This document shows positions 4,028 through 27,961 of a stretch of DNA of 64,000 nucleotides, piece after piece; the stretch's first letter is position 1, and each line of letters begins with the position of its first letter. Below the pieces are notes generated by a model. That model was not told the origin of the DNA. It saw only the letters and a program-made list of their open reading frames with translations, and searched no databases. Source of the DNA: Thelephora terrestris (Eukaryota; Basidiomycota; Agaricomycetes; Thelephorales; Thelephoraceae); contig WIUZ02000001.1 of the NCBI GenBank assembly GCA_015956445.1, positions 4,340,001 to 4,404,000 on the forward strand. Direction: 5' to 3'. A program made the position numbers and the translations under genes.

Positions 4028-5625
4028 CTACCCAGAGACCTATATTGTATTGTTCCTCCGCCCGTTACTGATCTATCGCCAGTTTGTAATTTTCAAGACC
4101 AATCTTATGTATTTGGCCAGAGCGTGTCGCTAAACATCAAAACGGCGCGTTGACGGTATCCAGCAATCACTACCTCTGTCGTTTGAGCATTGGGCACCGA
4201 GAGAACATGACATAAGGGGTGAATGGATAGGAATTTTCTCGAAAAGCGGCGTCGTGAAGAGGGAGGTCAGAGGCTTGAGGCCTTGAGGGTCAGAGGTGGT
4301 AAAAATAAATACGATGGTGCACCTCAAAAAGCACGATCGTAGATAATTTGTCATAAGCCGTGTACTCAAATTCATCCCTCAAAACTTTAGGAATCAAAGG
4401 GAGATACCCAAAGATACCTACAGTAAAATACAGAACACGGTTGAAACAAGAGAGATGGAGTTATCTGCTTTCAAAGTCAACATAGAGATGGTGCGTCCTG
4501 AGCGTGACGAACTTTGACCGGACAGTAACGTTCGGTCACGCGGATCAACCAATGCCGCGTTCAAACTCAGCCATGCCGGTTTGCTGCCGGTCCAGGGAAT
4601 CAACGATGACCATGAGATTTTGCCAGCGGAGTTTCAACGCTCCTTACAAAAAAACGCGTCCATTGTCACGCTTGAACAACCCTTTCGTTTGGTACTTGTC
4701 TTGTTTCTCTACTTGCAAAAATCCAGCCGGAAATTTGATTTCCAACAGAATGCATGCATTGTTAGCTGGCTCCCGAGAACTGAGCACTTTCGACAAGAAT
4801 GGAATTAATCCGGTTAGGCTTTTTGATAAACCAAACGATGACCATGATGATACCTGCCAACGAACCTGGTCGAACCGCGAGTGAATGGCTTACCGATTCA
4901 CTGAAAACCCCACCCGCCCGGGTCTCCAGCGGAATTGTCGCTTCCGTTTGGATTCCCGCCTATTTCACCCGGGAGCCGGAACTTGACGCGCTCATGCGGT
5001 TTCTACAATTCGCGCATCCTGAGATTCTTCGACAGATCCATTCATTGTCCACCACCCGCAGCGGTATCCGGAAGAAGGGATTCTGATTTTTCTCAAAGGC
5101 AGGTTTGGTCCTGCAGTGTGTAATGCAACACGCGTTGCCTACTCTCTGGCTCTCAAGATCCCAAAGCCGCTCGTTGGCCCTATGCGTTATCCAGATATGG
5201 AAAGTGTCATACAACGGTCTGCTGTCACGTCAACATCACGCCACAGCGACCAGCTGGTTGTTCGGCCTGCTGTTGTCTAAATGTCTATCTGGGGTCGCCT
5301 CGAGGTCGCCTTGTCCTAAAATGGTCCACTGTCAGACTTTTTTGCGTTCGACCCCAAGACGTAGTACCAATCATGGTCTTGTACTCGTGCGTGCTCCTCC
5401 CTCATCAAGCCTAACCCGGCTCGCCTTGAAAGGGCGTTCGTTGCGATTGGTAACTTAAGGAACCCGTCTAATCAGCGATTCGTTCGCCCCCTCATAAACC
5501 TTGCCCGCTTTCCGTCATCTCACAGCTCCTATCCCAAATGTAGATAGAGGAAACGAACCATCGGTTTGACGTGCGTTCAGACTAGGAGTTTATGCGGCCC
5601 ACATCAATGCCAACAACACCGCGAG
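4028..5625. other. Intergenic, no supported gene
   Basis: Nothing with convincing protein character. It contains the 3' flank of the NB-ARC gene and the upstream flank of the DUF6535 gene. Short frames at about 4.5-5.4 kb look random. Confidence 0.5.
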
Positions 5626-5702
5626 GATATTTAAAACCCACCCCACTTTAGCCTCGCTCCCTCCTTGTTGTCTTCACTTCTCATCCCCAAAAAATCGAAT
5701 CC
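5626..5702 (+). promoter_or_regulatory. Probable core promoter of the DUF6535 gene
   Basis: A TATA-like ATATTTAAAA at about 5627-5636 is followed by a CT-rich tract at about 5650-5685 and then the ATG at 5703. This layout is common for fungal core promoters and is the main reason for choosing 5703 as start. Inferred from sequence only. Confidence 0.45.
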
Positions 5703-8700
5703 ATGTCCTCCTACAGCATGGCTACGCTGGAGGGGATCAGGTTAGAGAAGCTATTCGATCGCGTTGCCGTTTTACTGATTCTTTCACGCAGCCCAGGGAG
5801 CGAAAGTGAGAGAGCGGGATATCTGTCAGAAGAAACGTATGGGAGCACCACACGGCAGGGAAAGAGAGGGTGTGTTGTGTTCCAGTTTTGCCATTGATCT
5901 CGCTGAGCGTTGAGGCATCGGTATAAGACGTCGGAATCTTGTCAGGGATCCCTGGTCGCGGTGAGGCTCGATCGATTGCGATGTTTCGTTCTCCTCATTG
6001 ACTTATGACCACAGTCAGGATTCGCAAGCTATATCAGAGCTTAAGGAAGAGGCACGGGGCGAGAACACGAGTTACAGGCAAGCTCAGACTAGCCTCTTTG
6101 AGCCATCGTTTAACCCACGTGTAGTCGAGAGAAATCCCCTTTGCCGACGGAGGATAACGAACGAACCAAGTTTTACAAGCTGTACCGCGACAAGGCGGAA
6201 GAACACGACCGAGAGTTCGTCGAAAAATACAATGAAGACATGAATAATACCCTGATCTTCGTATGAGATTCTGTCGCCCGCGCGTGGGTGTACTCATTCT
6301 GTTTCCAGGCTGGTCTGTTTTCCGCCGTGACTTCCGCATTCATCACCCAGCTCCAGCCTCAGCTACAGCCCGATTCGGGTGACGAGACTGTAGCCCTCCT
6401 CCGCATCATTATCTACAAGATCGACAATTCCACCTTCGGAAACGACGTTCCCACCCTCCCACAATGGGCGGGCCCTCCCCATACGATAGTACTGGTTCAA
6501 GCAATCCTTTATGCAAGTCTTGCTATTGCGCTACTCGCCGCCTTCCTGGCGATGCTTGGCAAGCAATGGCTGAATCGATACGCCTCCGTCGGCTTGCGGG
6601 GGTCGCCCATTGAGCGAAGCCAGAGTAGACAACGGAAGCTCGACGGTATCGCAACCTGGCGCTTTGACTACGTGATGGAGTCATCGCCGTTGATGTTACA
6701 GGGCGCCCTCTTCCTTCTCGGCTGTGCACTCTCCCTCTATCTTTTGGGGATCAATTCAACCGTCGCGTCAGTCGTGCTTGGTTTTACCTCACTTGGGGGC
6801 ATCTTCTACGGGACCATCGTCTTTGCGGGCACAGTTTTTGTGGACTGTCCGTTCCAAACTCCACAGGCTCGAGTCCTCCGATATATCATCCGCCGCATAC
6901 CTCCCCTCATCCCGAGAACAGTCAAATCGACCACCTCCTCTATTACCAATAACTACAAGTTCATCACGGTGCTAGTCCTCTACGGGCGTGAATTAAAACA
7001 GCACAGGTAGTTGAACACGCTTATGGCCTACATGCATACTTTCTCACGCTAGCAATCTTCAGGGCATTTAAGGACCTTTTCCATTGGCTCTCTATTTGGT
7101 TTCGCGGTACATGCAAATCTGTCCCCGAAACGATCATAATGGACATGCAGTGCATTTCGTGGGTCCTTCGGGCATCTCTGGACAAGGCTGTTCACCTCTC
7201 GGCCCTGAGATTACTTGCGACGATGACGACGCTCGTTGACGTCAGCCCCACCCTCATCTCAGCTTGCTTTGATATTCTTATCAGTTGCGTGGTGGCCGTT
7301 GACGATAAGGCCGTTGTTACTCGAGAATCCAGGGAGCTGGGAGAGGTGTCCGCCGATTGTTTCCTACGCACATTGTCCCACACGAATCTGACGTTGAAAA
7401 CCGTCAAACGCGTCCGCAAGCGATACACGAGGACTTTCCCACCGAAAATCAACTTCGACGCCCTCCACCCTAACCACCGTCTCAGGGCGATCCACCACAT
7501 ATTTTACTCGCTGCAGCCGAGGGTCCAGAGGAGGGACAGCGAATTTGTTGGTATCCTCGCACATACTCTCACAGAACTCGCAAAAAAGCACGCATTGGAG
7601 GTCGTGCAGGGCGCCCGCGATATGCTTCTTCCAGGCAGACTTCATGTGAAAGTGCCCCGTTGGATTCTCCGCTTTGCGCTCCATCACTTGTCCCAAGACC
7701 CGCCACCCGCTGCCCCAATTATCATTGACTGTTTGTCGATCATCGCGATCGACCTTGGTTGTGATATCCCTCCGAATACCACAATAAAAAACGAGAGGTA
7801 TTTACATATTTTGAAGGGATTCACCGTTCTGACTTGGGGTTAGCACACGACTGGAAGAAATTTCCGACTTGGTGACTCAGACGCTGTTGAAAATGGCTGC
7901 GTCCGAGGACACGTATGGTATTCAGTCTAAGCACAAGGCTATCACCGCGTTCTTCCCCTATGCGGTCCGGCGAGAACGAGGTCGAGAGCCAAAACCTGAA
8001 CTGATGGGCGCATTCCTTGCCGCTGCCAAAATCTTCGGGCCAACAACACCGCTGTGGTATCCGGTCGTACCGTTCATCCCAGCTCTTTTCGACGTGGCGA
8101 GCCCGCAGGCGATCGTAGAAACATCACCATACGTGCCTTGGGGTCGTCTAGTGGAAGACGAGAGCGTGGTCGCCGACTGGGCCGAAGCAACGTCAGAGGT
8201 TACATATACAGAGGAGGTTGGGCAAATGGCAGTCGACGCACTGTTACAAATTGCGTCCGTCGACTTCCTGCGACCACACATTCCGGATGACTGCTGGTCG
8301 TTGTTGAACAGACGACCGTCTCTCCCCGCAGAATGCATCGGGCGGTCGATAGGAACGAAGAAACACGTCGTTCGTCGGATCGGACAACTTCGAGACGTCG
8401 AGACCCTCAAATCGTACTTCCTTCTCGTCTGGTCGGAGTGGGATCCCATCGGGTCCCCGAAGCTGAATCCCACCGACTCGACCAAGTGTCTCGCAGAGAT
8501 GCAACTTACGATCTCGCGGGATCTCAGAGGAGTCGAGATGCAGGATCATCGAGAAGAACTTGTCAACCATCTGGATCACGTTCTGGGACAGTTGGATCGG
8601 GGATTAGGATACCTCAAGCAGCATAAGCTGTGGATCGATGAGGATGACGTGCAACGAGCAAAGGCGCAATACAAGAAGCTCAAGGAGGTGCTGCTGGGGT

Positions 8701-17137: not shown

Positions 17138-19977
17138 ATTTGGGCACTCCCGATCCTCGTTGACCCCAGCCAGGGCGCGAGACGGTAGCGGTTGGTTCAA
17201 ACAGCGTACTCTAAACCGCCACCGTCATACAACCTCCCGCCGCTCCCGCATAGTACACCCCACCATAGGGCCGCCCCCACTTCACGCACTGTGCTTCCGT
17301 TCCCCCCACACGGCATCCACTGACCGGCGATCCCCTGCGAAACCCATTCAGTGTTTTGCCTATCGTCCTGAGTATGGAAAGGCTACTACACTGGCCCACT
17401 TCGCGTTCTAACTCGCCAAAGCGTGTTTCACGTCCACCAACCTCCACTGAGAGGTATGGCCGATCTCCCTCAGCCGCCGCGGACTCCCCTGTTCAGTACA
17501 TTCCACTTGTTCGAACGGGGCCCTCGTTGGTTATTATCTCATCGTTCCCTAAATCTTCTCGGTATTTTCTGTCATCATTGATGCATCAAACGTCCTGGCG
17601 TCGCATAGTTTCCTACTACCTCTTCTTTCCCGATAGAGATCCACTTGTAGTAGCCTCCTGCTCCATCTTTCTTCATTTTTTTGTTCGTAAATATCACGGT
17701 GTATCATATCCATCTACGCTCAACGTCGGTGTGTAATGCGGTTCCTTGCTCGGGGCATCGGGTCCCATAGGGTCCTCTGTAAAGCGCCCCGGTTACCTCG
17801 ACTCATCCACCATTGGAACGCAACGAGTAAGAGGGTATCCTACTCCTGAGCCCGATTCACTGCATTGAATCTTCCAGCCTGGTCCTCTGTCTCTAATCAC
17901 TTCCAGGCGCAAACGAGGAAACCCACCGAAAAATTGGGCGAAATGTCCTGCCCATTAGAGACCTCACGAGCCAGGTAGTTTCTAAGAAGTTCCCGGTCGT
18001 TATCGCTAACGGTAGTGTCTTCCGGGCATAGACCTCGGAAGTGAGGAAATTTCGTCTCCCGGATTCGGTTGCAGAAATCACTTAATCGACCCGCTTAATC
18101 GAACCAAAGCATACACCCGACATTGCAGCAAGTCGGTCCTTTGATCTATCGGCGGGGGGTTGAGTCAGGGTAACATGCACAATGTTGGGAGGTGAACGGA
18201 TTCGAGGCGCAGGCCCGACGGCAGGTCAGAAGTAGCTTCAAGTCCGCTAAGAGGCCTGAGGCACTTATAGCGGAGTTGAAGCGGGCAGCACAAGAAGGAG
18301 AAGAAGGACTCGCGCAGTTGCGGGGGCTCCGATGGATCGCCGACAAGCACGTCTTCGAAAGCGAGAGATAGCTAAGAACGAGAGGAGTCTAGCAACAAGA
18401 GACCCTGTAACCGAAGGAGGTCTGATTTTCGGGCAACCCTGGCTGAGCCTTCGGAGAGAAACCAAAAAATCTCTATTCATACCTACAACATTGGTTTGTA
18501 TAGTTTTGGCCTCGTAAAGCCCGTGTGACGTTGAGGTGAGATCCGAGGGCTGAACTCGCTCGAAGACTGCTACTCGTCGACGCGGCATGGATGCGTTACA
18601 GAGCTCCCCAGAGTTCTAGAAGCGCAGCGTGTGAGTGCTTTGCCTTGCCAATCCTGGAATCCCGAGGCTGTAGGGTACGACAAGCAGCAGGGTTGGCTGT
18701 TGTATTCATGTGTTGCAAGGCAATGGTCAACCTTCGAAGGGTGTGGAACGCGTGTTCTAATGGAGGGTATCATCGGCGAAAGACACGATTCGGGTTTACT
18801 GCGCGGAAGCTCATTAACGGGAGGAAACCACGGCTCAAGATAGCATCGCGTTACAGTCAGTCGTTTCTTCAGAGTCGGGGAGGGGGGTGCAATCGAATTC
18901 CCCTCCCAAAGCGCGGTATGAGCTCATCGGAAGGTCCATGGTTGACGATTTTTGATATTCTCCATCTGAACAAATGCGATGAGCAAGCGGATGTGAAAAG
19001 CTGCTGAAAAAGACCCACGGCGCATGGGTCTGTTTGTCTCGGGATCCCAACCAACGCGGGTTTTCAAGCCACGGTTCCTATGCATCACACAGCTCCTAGA
19101 ATTCTTGCTATCGTCTGTGCGCCAAAGCCTGGGGCTGGAACCAGAGGAGCGAGACTCCGGGACGAGGTCCAGGTGGTGATAGCACCTCTAGATTTGCTAG
19201 TACCCGTTGACCTGACACTGGATGGTGCACATCGGCAATCCCTCGACAGAAATGATGGGAGAAACTATCGACGTCACATATGTACCCACCCCTTGAGGTG
19301 AGCACAGTTCGACCAGCTTTCCGTTCCGATGCGCATGGTTTTCAGGCGTTCGGTTTACTGCAAAACTTGTTGTGGCGATCACGAACTGGTTGAATCTATG
19401 GTCCCGGTTCCCCCCTTATCACGTTTGCGCATCCGTGTTTCCAACGCAGACCGGGGGCTGTCGTATATAGGTGGTGGGTGGACGGGACGACAGGAAATTG
19501 TGGGTCTCAAGGGCCCCTCCGGACTTCGATCCATCCAGACTGTTTCCTTCCCAGGGAATGTAGCCGATGCACTGATTATTCTCCTCTGAGATCTGACCAA
19601 TTTCAGGGATAATCGTTCCCCATGCTGGTGACGAGGTGCGGACGTACGGGAGGGGAGGCCGCGTTGACCGGTTGGTTACTGCGGCGCCCTTGAGGGTCTT
19701 GGTTAACTTGAGAGCCCGTTCGGTTCTCTCTGCACGAAAAAGAATTTACAATGGGTTTGATGAGCCCAGTAGACACAGGGGATGGAAACAATGAGGAGAT
19801 GATGCGCCAAGCAATGTTGTAAAGTGGGGGAGGTCGGGGTCTCTGCAAGTTTGCGAGCTGATTTTTTTTCTCAGCGCTTTATTTCCTAGAGCGCTTTGCA
19901 TTCGCTCGGAAAGGGGTGGATGCCACGTGTCCATCCATCTCTTATCGTCCCACCATCTACCTTGAACAAACGACAAC
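17138..19977. other. Gene-poor stretch, nothing supported
   Basis: Nearly 3 kb with only short, compositionally random frames on both strands. The last 100 bases are the CT-rich 5' flank of the NACHT gene. Confidence 0.5.
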
Positions 19978-22900
19978 ATGGGATTGCGAGATCTTCTCTG
20001 TATACCTAAATGGCATCACCGTAGTCGAAGCAAAGCGAGGAGCGAGGTCATCGAAGACCCGAGCGGAGCTGACCTGACCGTGCCACTGCCACGTCGCACC
20101 CAGTCGACTCCAGATCTACGGATTGATGACTCAACTTCACCAGTGTCTGGTCCGTCGACCTCTGGTGATCAAGGACGCGATGGTACGTTGGCGATTGCTT
20201 CTTGAGCGACCCATCTAAATGTGCTTGTTTCGCATGACCCAGGCCACCCGGCCAATGCTGGTCTATTCCGCTCTGTTCTTAAACAAGGAGAAAGCGCAGG
20301 TCCGGGGTCCTCTGATCCTGTCGTCAAGGCAGGCGCTACAGATGAGAAAAAGTCGCACCTCAAGTCCCTCGCCTCTTCCGGGGCCAAGTTCATCCTCCGT
20401 GGGGTCAACGAATCTGCGGATGCCTTTGGTCCGCTCAAATCTGTTGCAGGGGGTCTCTGCTATTTCCTAGACAACTACGAGGTACGTTAAACTCTTTCGC
20501 CCGTCCTTCAAAAAGCTTACGAGCGCACAAGCGAACGGAGGCAAACGAGCAATCGATGGAATCGTTGGCGCGCCGCGTCGGAGCACTCGCCGATTCGCTT
20601 TGTGCATCCGATCACCAGGATGATATCAAGGAAAAATCCAGGAGGAAATTTCTGGAAGAGTAGGCCCTGTGCTCTCCTGTATCGCGGACCGAGTCTGACG
20701 AACATCGAACATTAGAAAACTCAACAATGTTGCCAGGGAACTCGATTCATTGACGAAACAAGGCAATGTGGAGGGTTTCATCAAGAACGTCAAGAATGCT
20801 GATAGACTTGCTGGCTTGGTAGAGGATATTCGAGATGCTATCATGGAGTACCAGGTTTGTCCTTGGAGTCCTTACCCCCGCCTTGACCAACACCTTTTTC
20901 AGACCTCATTGCAACAAGACATCTATAAAAAGAACTCTATGCTCATTGTCAGTTTGTCCCCCAATTCCATCTTTTTACATGTGATGACAAGAGAACAGGA
21001 GAGATCAGACCTCGCCCTTCTCGACCGCATGTATCACATCACCAACGCTGGGTACCTCTGTGGAGACAGGCAGGGATGTATGAAGGGCACAAGGCGGGAT
21101 ACTCTCAATCACCTGGAGAACTGGTTGAATGGCCAAGAGGATAAACATGTGTTCTGGCTCAACGGTCTCGCAGGAACCGGAAAGTCAACCATAGCCCAGA
21201 CATTTGCAGAGACAAGTTTTGCAGATGGGAAGCTTGGGGCGAGCTTTTTCTGTTCACGAAATTTTGAAGACAGGAGCAACCTTCGATCAATCTTCCCCAC
21301 CCTAGCATTCCAGCTCGCCTATCAGTATCCACTTTTCTGCAAGGCCTTGCTCCCAGTCCTGACGACTAGCCATGATGTTGGGCGGGAGTCACTTTGTTCT
21401 CAAATGGAGAAGCTCATTGTTGAGCCATTCCAGGCCACACAAATTCCCACCCTCATCATCATTGATGCTCTTGATGAGTGTCAAGACAACGAACCTGCCT
21501 CTGCAATCCTCTCAGTGCTCTCCCGCTATGTGGACAAGATCCCCAGTGTCAAGTTCCTCATCACTGGTCGCCCTGAACCTCGAATCAGTGAGGGGTTCCA
21601 TCTTGAATCCCTCGAACCCACCACAGAAGTCTTCAAGCTACATGACGTTGAGCCATCTTCAGTGGAGAGCGATATCAGGCTGTTCTTCAGGACTCGGCTA
21701 GCTGAAATCACCAAAGCACGGAATAACTGTACCTTCCCACAAGACTGGCCCAAGTCATCTGACATCGACATTCTTTGCAAAAAGGCAGCAGGATTCTTCA
21801 TCTATGCTTCAGTTGTGGTCAAGTTTGTGGCATCCCCAAGCCGCATACCCACTGAACAACTGGACCAGGTTGTCTTGCTCCCACAAAGAATTGCCAATGA
21901 AGGGAAGGGAATTGACTCCCTATACACTCAGGTTCTCGAGCAAGCAGTTGGTGATGTGGAGGCAGATGATGACGATAAGGAGGAAATCTACTCTTGTTTC
22001 AAGACTGTGGTTGGGGCAGTGCTACTTGTGTTTAACTCTCTTCCAATAGGGGCACTCTCAGAACTCCTCAGAGTATCCAACAATAAAGTTTCCACCACTC
22101 TGTCTTCCCTCAATTCTCTCCTCCTTATCCCAGGTGCAGAAAGAATAGGAGAGCCAATCCGTGTCTTTCACAAGTCATTTCCTGACTTCCTTATGGATTC
22201 CAAGCGGTGCAGTAAAAAGTGGTTTTTTGTGGATAAAAACATCTATCATGCAAAAATCTCACTGTTATGCTTGGGTTTGATGAAGGAAAGGCTGAGGAGG
22301 AATATCTGCAATCTGGATGACTATGTTCTTCTTAGTGAAGTCGAGGAACTCTCTGGTCAGAGAAAGAACTACACTGGAGATGCTCTGGAATATGCATGTC
22401 AATTTTGGACAAAACACCTTCTGGAAACCCCCAAGGACAGCCCAGCCATTGGGGAATTAGAGAAAGAAATCAAGGAATTTTTCACCAAAAGATTGTTGTA
22501 TTGGATCGAAGTCCTCATACTCACAGGGAACCTTGATGCTGGGGTCTATGCTATGAATGATGTTGAGCAGTGGTGTGCTTCAGTGAGTGCTTTCTAGAAT
22601 GTTTTCTCAGTAACTTTTTGACAATTATTCAGGTGGGGATTCCATGCACATGGACCAATGACACCCAACGCTTTCTATTGGAACACTTTGACACCATCAA
22701 GGATTTTCCATCCCATATATACCATTCTGCCCTCCCATTCTGCCCCTCCTCATCATGGCTCCAAAAGGAGTATAGCACAGAAATCCTAGACAAAGTGAAG
22801 GTAGCCAATGGGCTTCCAGCTGAGTGGGGATCATGCTATCGTGCAGTTGATTTTGCTGGTCCTTCATTTGCCCTCTCAAGCTGGAAGAACTCAATTGCAG

Positions 22901-24420
22901 TTGGCATGTGGTCTGGGATTATTTTGATCCTAGATGCAATCACTGGTAGCCAAACAGCTGTTATTTCTTTGCATGAGGGTGGGGTAAATTCCGTCACCTT
23001 CTCACTAGATGGAGCTTTGCTTGTGTCTGGGAGTTTGGACGGGACCATCAAACTTTGGGATGTGCAGACAGGTGGAGCTATAAAGACCTTCATTGGCCAT
23101 ACAGGGAGGATGCTGTCTGTTTCCATCTCTGCAGACTCTGCAATGATCGCTTCTGGGTCTGATCAGGCAATCCAACTGTGGAGCATTCAAACAGGGGAGT
23201 GTTGCCATCAGATATCAAAGCAGGAGCCTGTAGACCAGGTTATCTTTCATCCTTTGGACCCACAGTACTTCATGTCTGTGTCTGATGAGAAAGTCCAGCA
23301 TTGGGATATCAATGGTCACCAGATTGGGGAGGAGTCTAGGAGCACTTGTGTTGCCTTTTCCTTGGATGGTACCAAGTTGGCTCTGTGCTATGATGGTGTT
23401 GTTACAGTCAAAGACTTCAGGTCAGGGGCAATTGTGGCTGAGTTCCATCCTGATGAGAGGGAGTTTGGGGCCTGTTGTTTCTCCCCTGACAGCAAGCTTA
23501 TTGCAGCAGCAGTTGGTCACATCATTTATGTGTGGGAAATCAAAATCTCAGCTTCCCACCCCATTGAGACTTTCCTTTGTGATACTGTTCTTGCCCTTGA
23601 ATTCACCTCACCCTCCACTCTTGTCTCAAACTCCTTTAAATTCAAGTTCTGGCAGATTGGGGCCTCTTCAACAAAGCCAGTCAGTTCTGATCCAAAGTCT
23701 GGATCCTCCTCTCCAGCTCAAACCATCTCTGTCAATATACAAGTAAACAATGACACTGTTATCACAAGTGATATTAATGGAGTGGTGGAGATCTGGGACA
23801 TCCTGACTGGCCACTGTAAGGGATCCTTTCAAACTGAAGCTAGGGGCCGCAATCATAAAGCCCAGCTAGCTGGTGACAAGTTGATCATTGTCCAGTGGCA
23901 AGACAAAGATGTCACTGTTTCAGATGTTGAGACACAAGAACTCCTCTGGCACAAGCATTTTGGCAATATTTCCCAGGGGATTGAGGCTGGGATATCAGAA
24001 GATGGGTCTAAAATCTTTTTTAAAGAAGAGTCTGGACCTATCCTAGTATTATCCTTATGGACAGGAGAGGTTGAAGATATGATAAGCAGTTCCGAACAAT
24101 TTGGTGCCCTACACCTGGACGGCTCAAGAGTCTGGACTGATTATGGGGAGCATTCCGAGGGGTGGGAGTTTGGGATCCCAGGGTCATCACCTGTTCAACT
24201 GTCCAACATACCCCCCAATAAACTCCACCCTAGTGGCACCATAATGTGGAACATTTTTCAACACAGAGTTCAAGATGTAGATACTGGAGAGGTGCTATTT
24301 CAGCTAGCTAAGGGATATGGCTTCCCTGCTGATGTGAAATGGAAAAACCAATACTTGTACATGTGCTTTTTTCCGAGAAAGGTGTTCATTCTTGACTTCA
24401 GCCATCTACTCCCTCAGTAG
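19978..24420 (+). CDS. NACHT-WD40 receptor (fungal NLR)
   Basis: STAND NTPase with a WD40 sensor, the class that includes fungal HET-type incompatibility receptors; cytoplasmic. Seven exons, introns at 20183-20242, 20482-20540, 20660-20715, 20855-20902, 20948-20998 and 22583-22632; all phases agree, giving 1372 aa with no internal break. Residues 1-70 are a Ser/Arg-rich leader. About 90-250 form a helical head (ILRGVNESADAFGPLKSVAG, then LVEDIRDAIMEYQ) of the same general kind as in the NB-ARC gene at 979. The P-loop GLAGTGKST is at about 305 and the Walker B LIIIDALDE at about 401. WD40 repeats (SGSLDGTIKLWDVQTG) begin near 850 and run to the end. From about 21.3 kb onward the gene is almost free of CpG, unlike its first exons. 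Introns 4 and 5 (48 and 51 nt) are stop-free and in frame. Expression and ligand cannot be inferred. Confidence 0.93.
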
Positions 24421-25111
24421 AGATTGATACTTTTTGCCAAGTCTTGTATTTTTTGTGCTCAATATTCCATAGGCTATGACCAATAAAATATGTGCAGAAA
24501 CTTTGTCTTGATATGAATGTAAAGATTAAGGTAATATAGTATCTAGAGTGAGAAGACTCATTTCTGTCTCAAACTCAGAACTCATTGCTCAAAGTCATTT
24601 GTATCACAGAAGAGGTTTTTGACATAGATAAAACACAAGTAACAAGCTCACAAAGAGATCTACCTCACAAGCACAAAATTCTATAGGAAGAAACAAGATA
24701 TAGCCAGAAGGCACCACTATTATATTGAAATAGTACCAAAACTATGTTGAAAAACATCTAATTTACAAGTGCAGGGGAAATCTCGACTCTACCTGCCAAA
24801 TTTCTTACCGGGGTTTACCGCCGGAGTGGTTTTGCAAGTACACTGGAACAGAGTTTTTCCAACAGATGGTATCTCGGAAAAGTGTTTCCGATGTTTGATT
24901 GGTACTCAAAACTTCACTACTAGGTACATTGTGATACAAATCTGAACTCAGCAGGTGATGAGGTGAACAGCGAGAAGACTACTCCCAGGATCTCGAAGGA
25001 ACTATGATCCTAGTGTCGTCACTTGTGGTGGCGTCGCTGGCCAATCGACTCGTAACCTGACAGAAACTCGGCTTGGGGTGGTGAGGCGAGGTTTACGAAC
25101 GATGGCTTACC
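24421..25111. other. AT-rich, CpG-free 3' flank then ordinary intergenic DNA
   Basis: From 24421 to about 24780 I see no CpG at all and strong A/T richness. CpG reappears abruptly at about 24784 and is normal by 24810. No gene. The change marks the right edge of the unusual block that carries the NACHT-WD40 body. Confidence 0.7.
24482..24487 (+). terminator. Possible polyadenylation signal of the NACHT-WD40 gene
   Basis: AATAAA 62 bases after the stop codon in an AT-rich context. Fungal poly(A) signals are loose, so this is suggestive only. Confidence 0.35.
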
Positions 25112-25803
25112 GGTTCACTATCGTCCTCATCCACCTGGGTCTCCTGAGTTTCTTCTTCCGTTGCGGGCTCAGTTTCCACTTCGGTGTCAGCATGAAGTGA
25201 CGACCCGTCCGACTGCGTCTCTTCCAATTAGGTTTCCACCTCTTCCACCTGAGAATCGAAATTGGTCGTGGTCTGAGAATCGTCTCCCATTTGCGCGTCC
25301 TGAAGCTCTTCGGCAGATCTCTTGCCCTTCACTGCAACACCGTCCGGAAGAGGGGATTCGGATTTTTTCTTGAAGTCAGCTTTCGCCTTATCCTTCCTCG
25401 CATGTTTTTTCTTGCCCTTGGCTCCAACAACTTTATTCACAAGCTTTCCGCCTAACACGTGCGAAACAAACGCCCATTCACATCAAGAACGAAGGGGCAA
25501 GAATTAAAACGGTTCAGACTCACGTTTGGGGGGATCGGTGCTGGTCTCTGCAGCTTCGACCTTCTCGAAGAAAGTTTCGCTCTTGTGCAACGACTTCTGC
25601 GTGCCGAGCGCAGCGGGTTTCTTGCTTCCAATACCAAGCTCCATCTTCGGAGGACCCATCTCTGCCTTCTTCGCGAACGGATTCGCCTCTAGGAAACAGA
25701 ATAACGATGCATCAGTTCGGCCGTGCGCGGTGAACGGAAGCATGGTAAGGCAACACTCAACTGGTTTTAGGTTGGCCAAGCGCTCGACGTTTCGCACCGT
25801 CAC
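25112..25803 (-). pseudogene. Truncated C-terminal fragment of a nuclear, Ctf4/And-1-like protein
   Basis: Reads NPFAKKAEMGPPKMELGIGS and KSLHKSETFFEKVEAAE, then, after an intron (25450-25523), a Lys-rich stretch (GKKKHARKDKAKADFKKK) and an acidic tail. A second intron precedes the first block (25691-25758, GTTGAG to TAGAG). The NPFA and SLHKSETFF motifs recall the C-terminal tail of the replication adaptor Ctf4/Mcl1; this is from memory and weak. The fragment has no upstream gene: immediately beyond 25803 begins DNA shared with the other kinase copy, so the duplication junction cut it. Its acidic tail also contains a stop at about 25228, after which the same frame continues acidic (ATEEETQETQVDEDDSEP). 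Probably dead. Confidence 0.5.
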
Positions 25804-25892
25804 TTCTACTCGTGCTCGAAAGCCCCCGTGGTTTGGGGAGGTATATTGATATAAACGACAACATCAAGCTGCATAGATGCTGACTTCAGGTT

Positions 25893-27961
25893 TCAGACGC
25901 TAACCTTTTCGCCGAGCCCTTCCATGACACCCTCCAAGCTTCTAATATCGTGTTCCTTCTTCATGACCTCCCACCTACCCACATCAGACCGCACTACGGG
26001 ATTGAGACAAGGAGAGTAGCGGTCTTCTCTGTGTTTGCCGACCCAATCAAAATCTACGAGGAAAACACAATCGCCTTTATGCGAGTAGAGAATATTCAGC
26101 TGCCGGAGGTCACCAAAGACAAGATCCTGTCCGTGGAGCAACCCGAGGGCCTTCTCAAGGCTCTTGCGGACGACTTCGACCTTCAGCGGACATGGGGGGG
26201 TAAACGGCGAAAAGAAGAGGTGAAGAGGGCTGGCGTCCGACATGTACTCCATCACGACCATATACATGTCACCAATAATGCGGTTGCAAGAGAATAGAGC
26301 TGGGGCAAGTGGAGGATCTTGGTTAGCGAGCAGACGATGAGCCTCTTGGTTGTACTTTGGGGTAAACTTAACAAAAACTAGGTTGTCCGAGGCGTCGCCT
26401 GCGGTATTGGTCTGCATCCTTGCGAGGTAAATTGCATGTCGCTCATTTGCCTCATCGACGGTAGCGAGCCGAGCACCGCTTTGGCGATCCAACTTGCAGA
26501 TGAACTCGAGCCGTGGGATCTCAGCCTCCGGCGGGTCTGCCGTCGGGCTTGGGTACATAACGCCGGGCTGCACGTTTTGGAGGTTATCGAGGAGACGATA
26601 CTGAGCGCGGAGTCTGACTGTGCATTCTTCTATTGCCGCAAACACACGCGCAACGCGGAGAACGTTGTCCGCACCGTGTGATCCGAGATGGAGGTCGATC
26701 GAAAGCAACTTATCCGCGTATACGGCGTCGGTGTAGATGGCTGTTGATACCACGAGATTATTCCCTGCCATGCTTAGCAGGACGACAGGGAAGTTTGAGC
26801 GTGAGAGGTGATTGACGATCTGTAGAGCAAACTTAGACACGGGGCCACCGGTGAAAGAAGAGGGGAAAGTACCTGCTTGACAGCGTTGCCGTATACCACC
26901 AGACTCTGCAAAAATGGGTCTCCTCCCAGACCTGGTTCATTCTTCAGTTCGAAAATCATATACGCGAAGGGCCCTTCAAGCCAAAGACCATCTGGTATGG
27001 TTGATCCACTCGCTACCGACTCTTTCCATGAAGCCTCCGTTCCGAGCAATTCCTTCAGAGGGTCCTTTAAGGACTTGAACCTCTCTTCATCCGACGAATG
27101 GAAGTCTGCAGCAATAGTGGTGAGGCTGAAAGCATGGCACAGTTTCTGGTGGGGTGGTGTGAACTTGTCGAGGTGTTCGAGGTCGTACTTCAGACGGGCC
27201 AGCGCATCGTTAAAAAGAACAGTTGGTGGTCCAAAGCGATGGGAAGGCCTGCCATATCGCGGTCCACTGGGAAAAGTGACCGTTCTTTTGATCTTATTGA
27301 AGTCCTTGATACTATCAGACGGGGAGGTTGTACCCCCGAGACCACTGGCGTTTTTGATTCGCTCTGCCCTGTATGAGAACATGCGGGGTGGGGTGAGGTG
27401 GGGTGGGATGAAAGGAACGCTCACCTTGCATACGTTTAGCGTTTCCATCGGCGTCTTCCAAAAAGTCTGCATCCTCGGTGACTGTAAAGCAATCTATCGA
27501 TTGAGTCGACCGAAGCACGCGAACGAGCACGCACTCGCTTGGGTCACAACCACGAATTGGACCACTTCTTCCAGGTCATCTCTGTAGTGCTTGTCCAAAC
27601 GCTCATATTGCTTCACAACTTCTTCTTTTCCTGCTCTTTCTTTTCCTGCTCTTTCTTTTCCTGCTCTTTCGTGTATCCACTTACGTATCGGTGCCCTGGA
27701 GTCAGTATCCACATCCTTGGTAGCGAGATCATTGGCCTGAAATGCCGGTCAGGGTGGAAGTCAGGCCTCCGATGACTGACTCACCTTCCAGATGGCAGCA
27801 GTTTTCAAATCGTCGACGTGTTCTGGGAAGAGATCGATGAACTGCCTAACGAGCCACCGCCCATTCTTCAGTGGATCAAACTCAATATCTAGGATGGACT
27901 TGTCTGGGGGGATATCTGGGTGAGGGTAGGCGACGAGACAAGCCTTGGTGGTGGTGGTCAT
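25893..27961 (-). CDS. Divergent protein kinase-like gene (copy B)
   Basis: Basidiomycete-specific kinase-like family; substrate unknown. Exon 1 (27785-27961) encodes KACLVAYPHPDIPPDKSIL. Later exons are joined by introns with donors at 27784, about 27530 (GTGCGT to TTTACAG) and about 27425, plus one near 26875. The C-terminal lobe is clear: a beta3-type lysine in LVFVKFT, an alphaC-type glutamate in YNQEAHRLL, the hinge YMVVMEY, the catalytic Asp in VFGDLRQLNILY, and DFDW in place of DFG. Around 27210-27222 the reading must move from the frame VDRDMAGLPIALDH to the frame LFNDALARLKYDLEHLDKF. No intron explains it and copy C has the same length there. Either both inherited a frameshift or an intron is missed. 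A 15-bp triplication lengthens exon 2 in frame. Downstream flank and leader are shared with copy C. Confidence 0.65.
27625..27669. repeat. Three tandem 15-bp units inside kinase copy B
   Basis: CTTTTCCTGCTCTTT occurs three times in a row. On the coding (minus) strand it encodes repeats of about AGKER. The paralog at 39.17 kb has a single related unit, so copy B has expanded by 30 bp without changing frame. Confidence 0.9.

What the first reader, a model, noticed from the sequence alone, without database searches (positions are those of the whole stretch)
20900..24783. CpG-poor block forms the body of an otherwise normal NACHT-WD40 gene
Exons 1-4 of this receptor have the CpG-rich composition of the rest of the window. 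From about 20.9 kb, and strongly from 21.3 kb, CpG almost disappears while TG and CA are plentiful. The WD40 half has only a few CpG per 400 bases, and the 3' flank to 24.78 kb has none; then CpG returns abruptly. The reading frame is intact over 1372 codons, so this is not simple repeat decay. Two explanations fit: the NACHT-WD40 body and its 3' UTR came from a donor of different composition and were grafted onto a resident head (domain swapping, or transfer), or the segment was methylated for a long time while still under selection. NLR shuffling is known in fungi; such a sharp one-gene composition edge is unusual.
Basis: partly seen in the sequence, partly recalled or inferred. Interest (0 to 1): 0.72.

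Follow-up and report, generated by a model that had tools for sequence, protein, structure and literature searches.

The report
CpG-eroded bodies of fungal immune receptors
In this fungus an immune-receptor gene and its nearest relatives have lost almost all CG pairs from the body of the gene but not from its start, the scar that long-lasting DNA methylation would leave inside genes that are still kept working, which would be unusual for a fungus.

Summary
One CpG-depleted segment lies in the 64-kb window, 20,759-24,772, over the body of a seven-exon NACHT-WD40 gene. The graft explanation fails: all 16 paralogues read show the same step, and the closest copy shares head, body and both flanks. 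The depletion is purely CpG: in 17 copies, third-base C is 3-4% before G in the mid and WD40 parts but 58-65% before other bases. This fits long-term CpG methylation of the transcribed body, sparing the first 0.8-1.9 kb, in genes under purifying selection. It is not a generic repeat effect: none of 11 reverse-transcriptase, 6 P450 and 6 SNF2 loci sampled is strongly depleted (two reverse-transcriptase loci are mildly low), while 4 of 9 other NACHT genes and 2 of 4 DNA-methyltransferase genes are. An unmarked receptor clade has 84-87% copies; a marked one has none closer than 76%. No methylation or expression data were available: 5mC is inferred, recent CpG loss was not shown, and gene-body methylation versus silencing is open. 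New variant of a known kind.

The parts
19978..20854 (+). Head of the receptor gene, exons 1-4 (19978-20182, 20243-20481, 20532 or 20541-20659, 20716-20854); CpG composition normal up to about 20.8 kb
   Evidence: gene model; CpG per 200 bp; introns 1-3 hold 4, 5 and 5 CpG; no Pfam domain over cut-off in the head
20759..24772 (.). CpG-depleted segment (HMM); graded 5' onset about 0.8 kb after the ATG, sharp 3' end about 0.35 kb after the stop
20999..22582 (+). Exon 6 with NPHP3_N (21110-21571) / NACHT (21149-21607) NTPase; exon 5 is 20903-20947 (exon 6 may start at 21002)
   Evidence: Pfam PF24883 E 9.3e-29, PF05729 E 1.2e-9; model
22633..24420 (+). Exon 7, WD40 beta-propeller half, nearly CpG-free, stop at 24418-24420
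   Evidence: PF00400 E 5.8e-24; CpG o/e 0-0.29 per 200 bp over 22.6-24.4 kb
24421..24783 (.). 3' flank without any CpG (likely 3' UTR and end of the transcription unit)
   Evidence: next CpG at 24784

Best explanation
The block is the mutational scar of long-lasting, symmetric CpG methylation of the transcribed body of an NLR-type receptor gene. The first 0.8-1.9 kb after the start codon are spared and the mark ends soon after the stop. Methylated CpG is lost to TpG/CpA by deamination while selection keeps the protein. It is a heritable state of particular gene lineages (this NACHT-WD40 family, some other NACHT lineages, two of four DNA-methyltransferase genes), not of repeats as such and not of a grafted segment. 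Shown: CpG-only depletion, its place in the gene, its sharing by the 16 paralogues read, its two-valued state among the NACHT genes sampled, no strong depletion in the reverse-transcriptase loci sampled. Inferred: that 5mC made it, that the marking is gene-body methylation compatible with expression rather than plain silencing, and that promoter chromatin protects the head.
For: Same head-normal, body-depleted, 3'-bounded profile in this gene and 16 of 16 paralogues read; the depleted segment starts 0.78-1.86 kb after the start codon in the 13 of 17 where exon 1 was found and ends 0.17-2.35 kb after the last codon in 17 of 17. Codon-controlled test over 17 copies: third-base C before G 22/655, 35/939, 19/680 in mid, WD40a, WD40b, against 1151/1771, 1304/2175, 1142/1971 before other bases; NACHT 151/788 against 1374/1912; head 309/630 against 621/1125; eight control ORFs 388/680 against 856/1526; NCG out of NCG+NCA falls likewise (14/422, 19/516, 6/476; control 273/532), so both strands are hit. 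Introns 4-6 hold 1, 0, 0 CpG where introns 1-3 hold 4, 5, 5, and the 3' flank holds none. Omega of this gene against its three closest copies is 0.20-0.25 in NACHT and 0.45-0.71 in WD40. The genome encodes a BAH + DNA_methylase gene (DNMT1 type) and a DNA_methylase gene followed by an SNF2 match (DNMT5 type) (type names recalled).
Against: No 5mC data. Polarised CpG differences between this gene and its closest copy in the body are 3 losses and 11 gains by parsimony, and CpGs shared by both outgroups are mostly kept there (25 kept, 5 to TG/CA, against 75 and 7 in the head), so recent loss is not shown; the case rests on standing composition. No expression data. Of the NACHT hits that do not match this gene by DNA only nine were sampled, plus two relatives of those, and the reverse-transcriptase loci may be too young to show decay. 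The CpG-normal pair L052/L069 also differs at many CpGs.
Confidence: 0.75

Rival explanations
1. Silencing-type methylation of surplus receptor genes (repeat- or small-RNA-directed), with enough occasional expression to keep frames open; the head escapes because promoter chromatin excludes the mark. This is a rival about what the methylation does, not about whether it is methylation.
For: The NACHT family is large (91 hits, a lower bound); Piwi-domain matches are present (13 matches); [quoted passage not shown] The two depleted methyltransferase genes could be broken: three of their five matches contain a stop, although read-through introns would give the same.
Against: Copy number does not predict the state: L052, with four copies at 84-87% DNA identity, is normal, while L056, best copy 76%, is depleted. 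Two methyltransferase genes not alignable with each other at DNA level are depleted. Reverse-transcriptase loci sampled are not strongly depleted. Frames and omega speak for regular use.
Confidence: 0.35
2. RIP- or MIP-like attack on duplicated DNA.
For: Passages of PMC4014442 report CpG-to-TpG hypermutation in genes and repeats of Rhizoctonia solani AG8 and cite CpG-biased RIP-like mutation in basidiomycete repeats. The family is duplicated.
Against: The duplicated unit shared with L011 runs 18689-25807 and is 99% identical in the head, yet head and 3' flank are CpG-normal. Reverse-transcriptase loci sampled are spared. No loss of third-base C outside CpG.
Confidence: 0.08
3. Graft or horizontal transfer of a CpG-poor NACHT-WD40 body onto a resident head.
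For: Composition step inside one gene; head, NACHT and WD40 trees conflict strongly among other copies, and head and WD40 also disagree on the order inside this gene's own clade (L013+L014 0.944 in head, W+L011+L014 0.958 in WD40), so shuffling or conversion happens.
Against: Same step in 16 of 16 paralogues read; this gene's clade (W, L011, L013, L014) is recovered from head (0.999), NACHT (1.0) and WD40 (1.0); non-CpG codon choice equals the window's. Shuffling between copies that all have the same step cannot create it.
Confidence: 0.02
4. Selection against CpG at RNA or protein level, with no methylation.
For: Frames are kept open.
Against: Introns 4-6 and the 3' flank lose CpG as well, NCG and NNC-G sites fall alike, and relatives of the same protein type are CpG-normal.
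Confidence: 0.03

Closest known systems
Gene-body CpG methylation of plants and invertebrate animals (mosaic methylomes with low CpG o/e in marked genes; description partly recalled)
   Same: Marked genes are CpG-poor in the body, spared at the 5' end, bounded near the 3' end, open in frame, and two-valued against unmarked genes.
   Different: Here it is seen in a fungus, and the marked genes found are receptor and methyltransferase genes, whereas the sampled SNF2 and P450 genes are unmarked. Reviews state that gene-body methylation is largely lost or negligible in fungi, with exceptions (passages of PMC13297926, and PMC7862722).
CpG methylation of multicopy paralogous genes in Coprinopsis cinerea
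   Same: The mark falls on members of gene families in a basidiomycete.
   Different: There 5hmC is also in transposons, their surroundings and centromeres (passage of PMC8889193); here sampled reverse-transcriptase loci show no strong decay, the scar spares the head, and DNA-level copy number does not predict it.
RIP and RIP-like CpG hypermutation (Rhizoctonia solani AG8, other basidiomycetes)
   Same: CpG to TpG/CpA, genes affected.
   Different: Not predicted by repeat number in the cases tested, spares the duplicated head and flank, few stops in the receptor frames.
Fungal NACHT-WD40 NLR / STAND receptors (HET-D/E type; type name recalled)
   Same: Central NACHT NTPase with C-terminal WD40 propeller, large family, WD40 half with the higher omega.
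   Different: Nothing structural was found to differ; the compositional state is what is unusual. No Pfam domain over cut-off was found in the head.

Membership tests
Fungal NACHT-WD40 NLR (STAND) gene | NACHT-type NTPase domain | tested here: met
   PF05729 38.7 bits over cut-off 26.7; NPHP3_N 101.2 bits over 24.8
Fungal NACHT-WD40 NLR (STAND) gene | C-terminal WD40 repeats | tested here: met
   PF00400 83.9 bits over cut-off 27
Fungal NACHT-WD40 NLR (STAND) gene | Recognised N-terminal effector domain | tested here: inconclusive
   Head of 265 residues: best match DUF6827 18.4 bits, below cut-off 26.9
Gene-body CpG methylation footprint | CpG-specific, strand-symmetric depletion with normal C outside CpG | tested here: met
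Gene-body CpG methylation footprint | Spared 5' end and boundary near the 3' end of the gene | tested here: met
   17 of 17 loci end 0.17-2.35 kb after the last codon; onset 0.78-1.86 kb after ATG in the 13 with exon 1 found
Gene-body CpG methylation footprint | Gene functional (purifying selection, open frame) | tested here: met
   open model; omega 0.20-0.71 against the three closest copies
Gene-body CpG methylation footprint | 5mC present on the body | not testable with these tools
   no reads
Gene-body CpG methylation footprint | Marked genes are transcribed | not testable with these tools
   no RNA data
RIP / MIP | Whole duplicated unit is hit | tested here: not met
   head and 3' flank shared with L011 are CpG-normal
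RIP / MIP | Other repeats (transposons) are hit | tested here: inconclusive
   6 best-scoring and 5 weak or broken RVT loci of 120 hits have o/e 0.93-1.01 and 0.65-1.27; copies may be young
Grafted / transferred segment | Composition step unique to this copy | tested here: not met
Grafted / transferred segment | Head and body trees in conflict for this copy | tested here: not met
   four-copy clade in all three trees; only the order within the clade differs between head and WD40

The most novel reading that the evidence does not exclude
The fungus keeps its NLR repertoire in two heritable epigenetic classes, gene-body-methylated and unmethylated, decided by gene lineage rather than by copy number, and DNMT1-type genes carry the same mark, which would form a feedback on the methylation system. 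This would be a gene-body methylation system in a basidiomycete aimed at innate-immune genes instead of transposons.
Probability: 0.17. Interest if true: 0.82.

Novelty: new variant of a known kind. Interest (0 to 1): 0.56.

Why it matters
The two reviews of which I saw passages describe gene-body methylation as largely lost or negligible in fungi, one of them because of its mutational cost, with methylation aimed at transposons. A gene-restricted CpG scar with a spared head, in receptors under selection and in methyltransferase genes but not in the reverse-transcriptase loci sampled, would be an exception readable from sequence alone. It would make testable whether fungal NLR repertoires are epigenetically partitioned. 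It also warns that a composition step inside a gene need not mean transfer or domain swapping.

Tried and rejected
Graft/transfer: rejected (paralogues, trees, codon choice). Subtelomeric chromatin as the cause: looked at by coordinates only; depleted genes also lie well inside contigs (C1:986k of 4.57 Mb, C7:574k of 1.04 Mb, C12:2.03 Mb of 3.46 Mb). Repeat number as the cause: three DNA searches and two further loci (read); not supported. TET/JBP oxidase search gave no match, but the control rang nowhere either, so absence is not shown. Head tree and head dN/dS were spoiled by introns (stops appear in this gene's own head at 90, 153, 185) and are discarded; the head tree was redone exon by exon. 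The head row rests on the same kind of intron-crossing matches and is only approximate; the NACHT, mid and WD40 rows are not affected. Of the eight control ORFs two overlap on opposite strands, so at least one is not a gene. Stops at position 786 in L022 and L026 sit at the exon 6/7 junction and are taken as intron artefacts. Omega of L016-L017 in the middle part was 1.03 (dS 0.011, too few changes). Polarising CpG changes did not show recent loss. Literature: eight searches, of which I saw capped listings of 8 to 20 rows, listed no title on CpG depletion or methylation of fungal NLR genes; the library holds only open-licence papers. Bewick et al. 2019 is not held and is known here only as cited by the reviews. 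Organism not identified; 'basidiomycete' is inferred from gene content and from recall.
Full report
Observation. The window is C1:4,340,001-4,404,000 of a 40.6-Mb, 60-contig genome. CpG o/e is 0.77-1.20 in all 1-kb bins outside 21-25 kb, and 0.43, 0.14, 0.05, 0.29 inside it; TpG+CpA is raised to 1.34-1.50 in 21-24 kb while GpC stays near the window mean. A two-state HMM finds a single depleted segment, 20,759-24,772. From the stop codon to 24,783 there is no CpG; introns 1-3 hold 4, 5 and 5 CpG, introns 4-6 hold 1, 0 and 0. The gene model runs 19,978-24,420 in seven exons, 1,371-1,375 codons, open throughout, with NPHP3_N/NACHT and WD40 domains and no Pfam domain over cut-off in the head.

The step belongs to the family, not to this copy. 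A DNA search of the genome returned 47 matches to the body (a capped list, some of them pieces of one gene). I read this gene and the 16 best-matching other copies (L011, L013, L014+L015, L016-L028); the remaining matches were not read. All 17 show a CpG-normal head, a slope through NACHT, near-zero CpG in the WD40 half and a return after the 3' end. In the 13 copies where exon 1 was found the depleted segment starts 0.78-1.86 kb after the start codon; in all 17 it ends 0.17-2.35 kb after the last codon, median 0.78 kb. L019 has a second depleted stretch of 0.85 kb further downstream, and the segment of L014 is split by its insert; no other extra segment over 300 bases appeared. The closest copy, L011, matches over 18,689-25,807 at 92%, that is beyond both CpG edges, with 19,900-20,860 99% identical. 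Head, NACHT and WD40 trees each recover W, L011, L013, L014 as a clade (0.999, 1.0, 1.0). Inside the clade head and WD40 disagree (L013+L014 0.944 against W+L011+L014 0.958), and among the other copies more strongly supported splits conflict between the three parts. So conversion or shuffling does occur, but between copies that all carry the step, and it cannot explain the composition.

The depletion is CpG and nothing else. Over 17 copies, third-base pyrimidines are C before G in 309/630 (head), 151/788 (NACHT), 22/655 (mid), 35/939 and 19/680 (WD40), and C before other bases in 621/1125, 1374/1912, 1151/1771, 1304/2175, 1142/1971; eight control ORFs of the window give 388/680 and 856/1526 (the head row is approximate because matches there cross introns). 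NCG against NCA codons fall in the same way, so both strands are hit. Codon choice outside CpG is close to the control's, which argues against a donor of other composition and against RIP acting on CpA. If composition is near balance, CG at 0.049 of CG+TG+CA against 0.348 in the window outside 19-26 kb means roughly a tenfold higher loss-to-gain ratio in the body (my arithmetic).

Selection. NG86 omega of this gene against L011, L013 and L014 is 0.20-0.25 in NACHT, 0.30-0.34 in the middle, 0.45-0.71 in WD40 (CpG hypermutability not modelled). Three other pairs give 0.08-0.24 in NACHT and 0.35-0.81 in WD40; one middle part gives 1.03 on very few changes. In the aligned NACHT-WD40 parts 15 of 17 copies show neither a stop (two junction artefacts apart) nor an insert: L013 has a stop at position 1291 and L014 is split by a 3.3-kb insert. 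Of 91 NACHT hits listed in the genome, 88 have no stop inside the match.

Is it still going on? Between this gene and L011, CG versus TG/CA differences number 31 against 25 shared CpGs in the body (20,860-24,783), and 15 against 126 in head plus 3' flank (Fisher p 1.8e-10); with the more divergent upstream block added the flanks give 36 against 185 (p 1.1e-8). But the two other copies as outgroups give 3 losses and 11 gains by parsimony in the body, and CpGs shared by both outgroups are mostly kept there (25 kept, 5 changed to TG/CA; head 75 and 7). Repeated loss in the outgroups would mimic gains, so direction is unresolved and I do not claim recent loss.

Who else has it? From the 91 NACHT hits I picked nine that did not match this gene at DNA level and read 650 bases downstream of NACHT: 4 of 9 are depleted (0.24, 0.11, 0.09, 0.16), 5 of 9 normal (0.90-1.07), none between. 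The position was comparable but not identical in the nine, and one depleted stretch (L051) could not be matched to the protein. The seven DNA_methylase hits belong to four genes by position (my grouping), of which two are depleted: C1:986k, with a BAH domain upstream of the methylase, and C15:291k; the gene at C58:397k, with an SNF2 match about 2.6 kb on, and C56:694k are normal. In both depleted genes CpG returns within a few hundred bases of the last matched exon; their 5' ends were not reached, so a spared head was not tested there. Their DNA is not alignable with each other although exons match in translation (E 1e-20). Three of their five matches contain a stop, which introns could explain, so broken genes are not excluded. 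Not strongly depleted: six best-scoring reverse-transcriptase loci (0.93-1.01) and five weak or broken ones (0.65-1.27, two of them 0.65 and 0.68) of 120 hits, six P450 loci of 97 hits (0.93-1.11), six SNF2 loci of 49 hits (0.86-1.04).

Copy number does not set the state in the cases tested. L052 (normal, 0.90) has four copies at 84-87% identity, and the one read is not depleted (L069, 0.79); L056 (depleted) has its best copy at 76%, which has no CpG at all (L068); L052 and L056 are 66-69% identical to each other. L050 (normal) has seven relatives at 72-79%. So the state is shared by near relatives in the two pairs read and differs between clades. L052 and L069 differ at many CpGs (20 CG/TG-CA differences, 18 shared), so the normal clade may not be entirely free of decay.

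Mechanism. The best reading is symmetric CpG methylation laid on transcribed bodies of certain gene lineages, kept off the head, lasting long enough for CpG to reach a low level. DNMT1-type and DNMT5-type genes are present. Two methyltransferase genes carry the scar; if they work, a mark compatible with expression is the likelier, since a permanently silent maintenance enzyme could not maintain anything, but one or both may be dispensable or broken. Silencing directed at receptors by small RNAs (Piwi matches) remains the main rival.

Known background. Passages of two reviews say that gene-body methylation is largely lost or negligible in fungi and that methylation sits on transposons, one naming Uncinocarpus reesii and Metarhizium robertsii as exceptions (PMC13297926; PMC7862722). 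A passage of PMC8889193 cites 5hmC in transposons, centromeres and non-expressed multicopy genes of Coprinopsis. Passages of PMC12129025 link CpG gene-body methylation to the lower-expressed allele in a rust. Passages of PMC4014442 report CpG-to-TpG hypermutation in genes and repeats between nuclei of Rhizoctonia solani AG8. The case here differs by gene specificity, by the spared head, and by the absence of strong decay in the reverse-transcriptase loci sampled.

Limits.

Noticed in passing
L030/L034/L035 (C1:985.6-986.8k) and L031/L033 (C15:290.9-292.2k): Two DNA-methyltransferase genes, one with a BAH domain, are CpG-depleted like the receptors, with CpG returning near the last matched exon; the DNMT5-like gene is normal. 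Three of their five matches contain a stop, perhaps from introns.
   Followed up: partly
L014 about 4056-7381 (C59:119.1-122.4k): A 3.3-kb insert splits the WD40 half of one close copy at the position equal to window 23035; it is CpG-normal (o/e 0.90) inside a depleted gene, so it is probably young.
   Followed up: partly
L013, L014, L020, L022-L028: Head, NACHT and WD40 trees conflict with strong support among these copies, pointing to conversion or domain shuffling between receptor paralogues.
   Followed up: partly
C12:2727888 and C29:27578; C12:2734044 and C29:21431; C32:9684 and C56:122659: Hits with identical scores on a large and a small contig; the small contigs may be alternative haplotypes or assembly duplicates.
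   Followed up: no
L019 7501-8354 (reverse-complemented locus): A second CpG-depleted stretch of 0.85 kb downstream of the receptor gene.
   Followed up: no
window 25893-26840: Convergent neighbour on the minus strand with a weak protein-kinase match (Pkinase 20.4 bits, below cut-off 31.7), CpG-normal.
   Followed up: no
L052 and L069: CpG-normal receptor pair that nevertheless differs at 20 CpG/TpG-CpA sites against 18 shared; a possible case of a mark being gained or lost.
   Followed up: no
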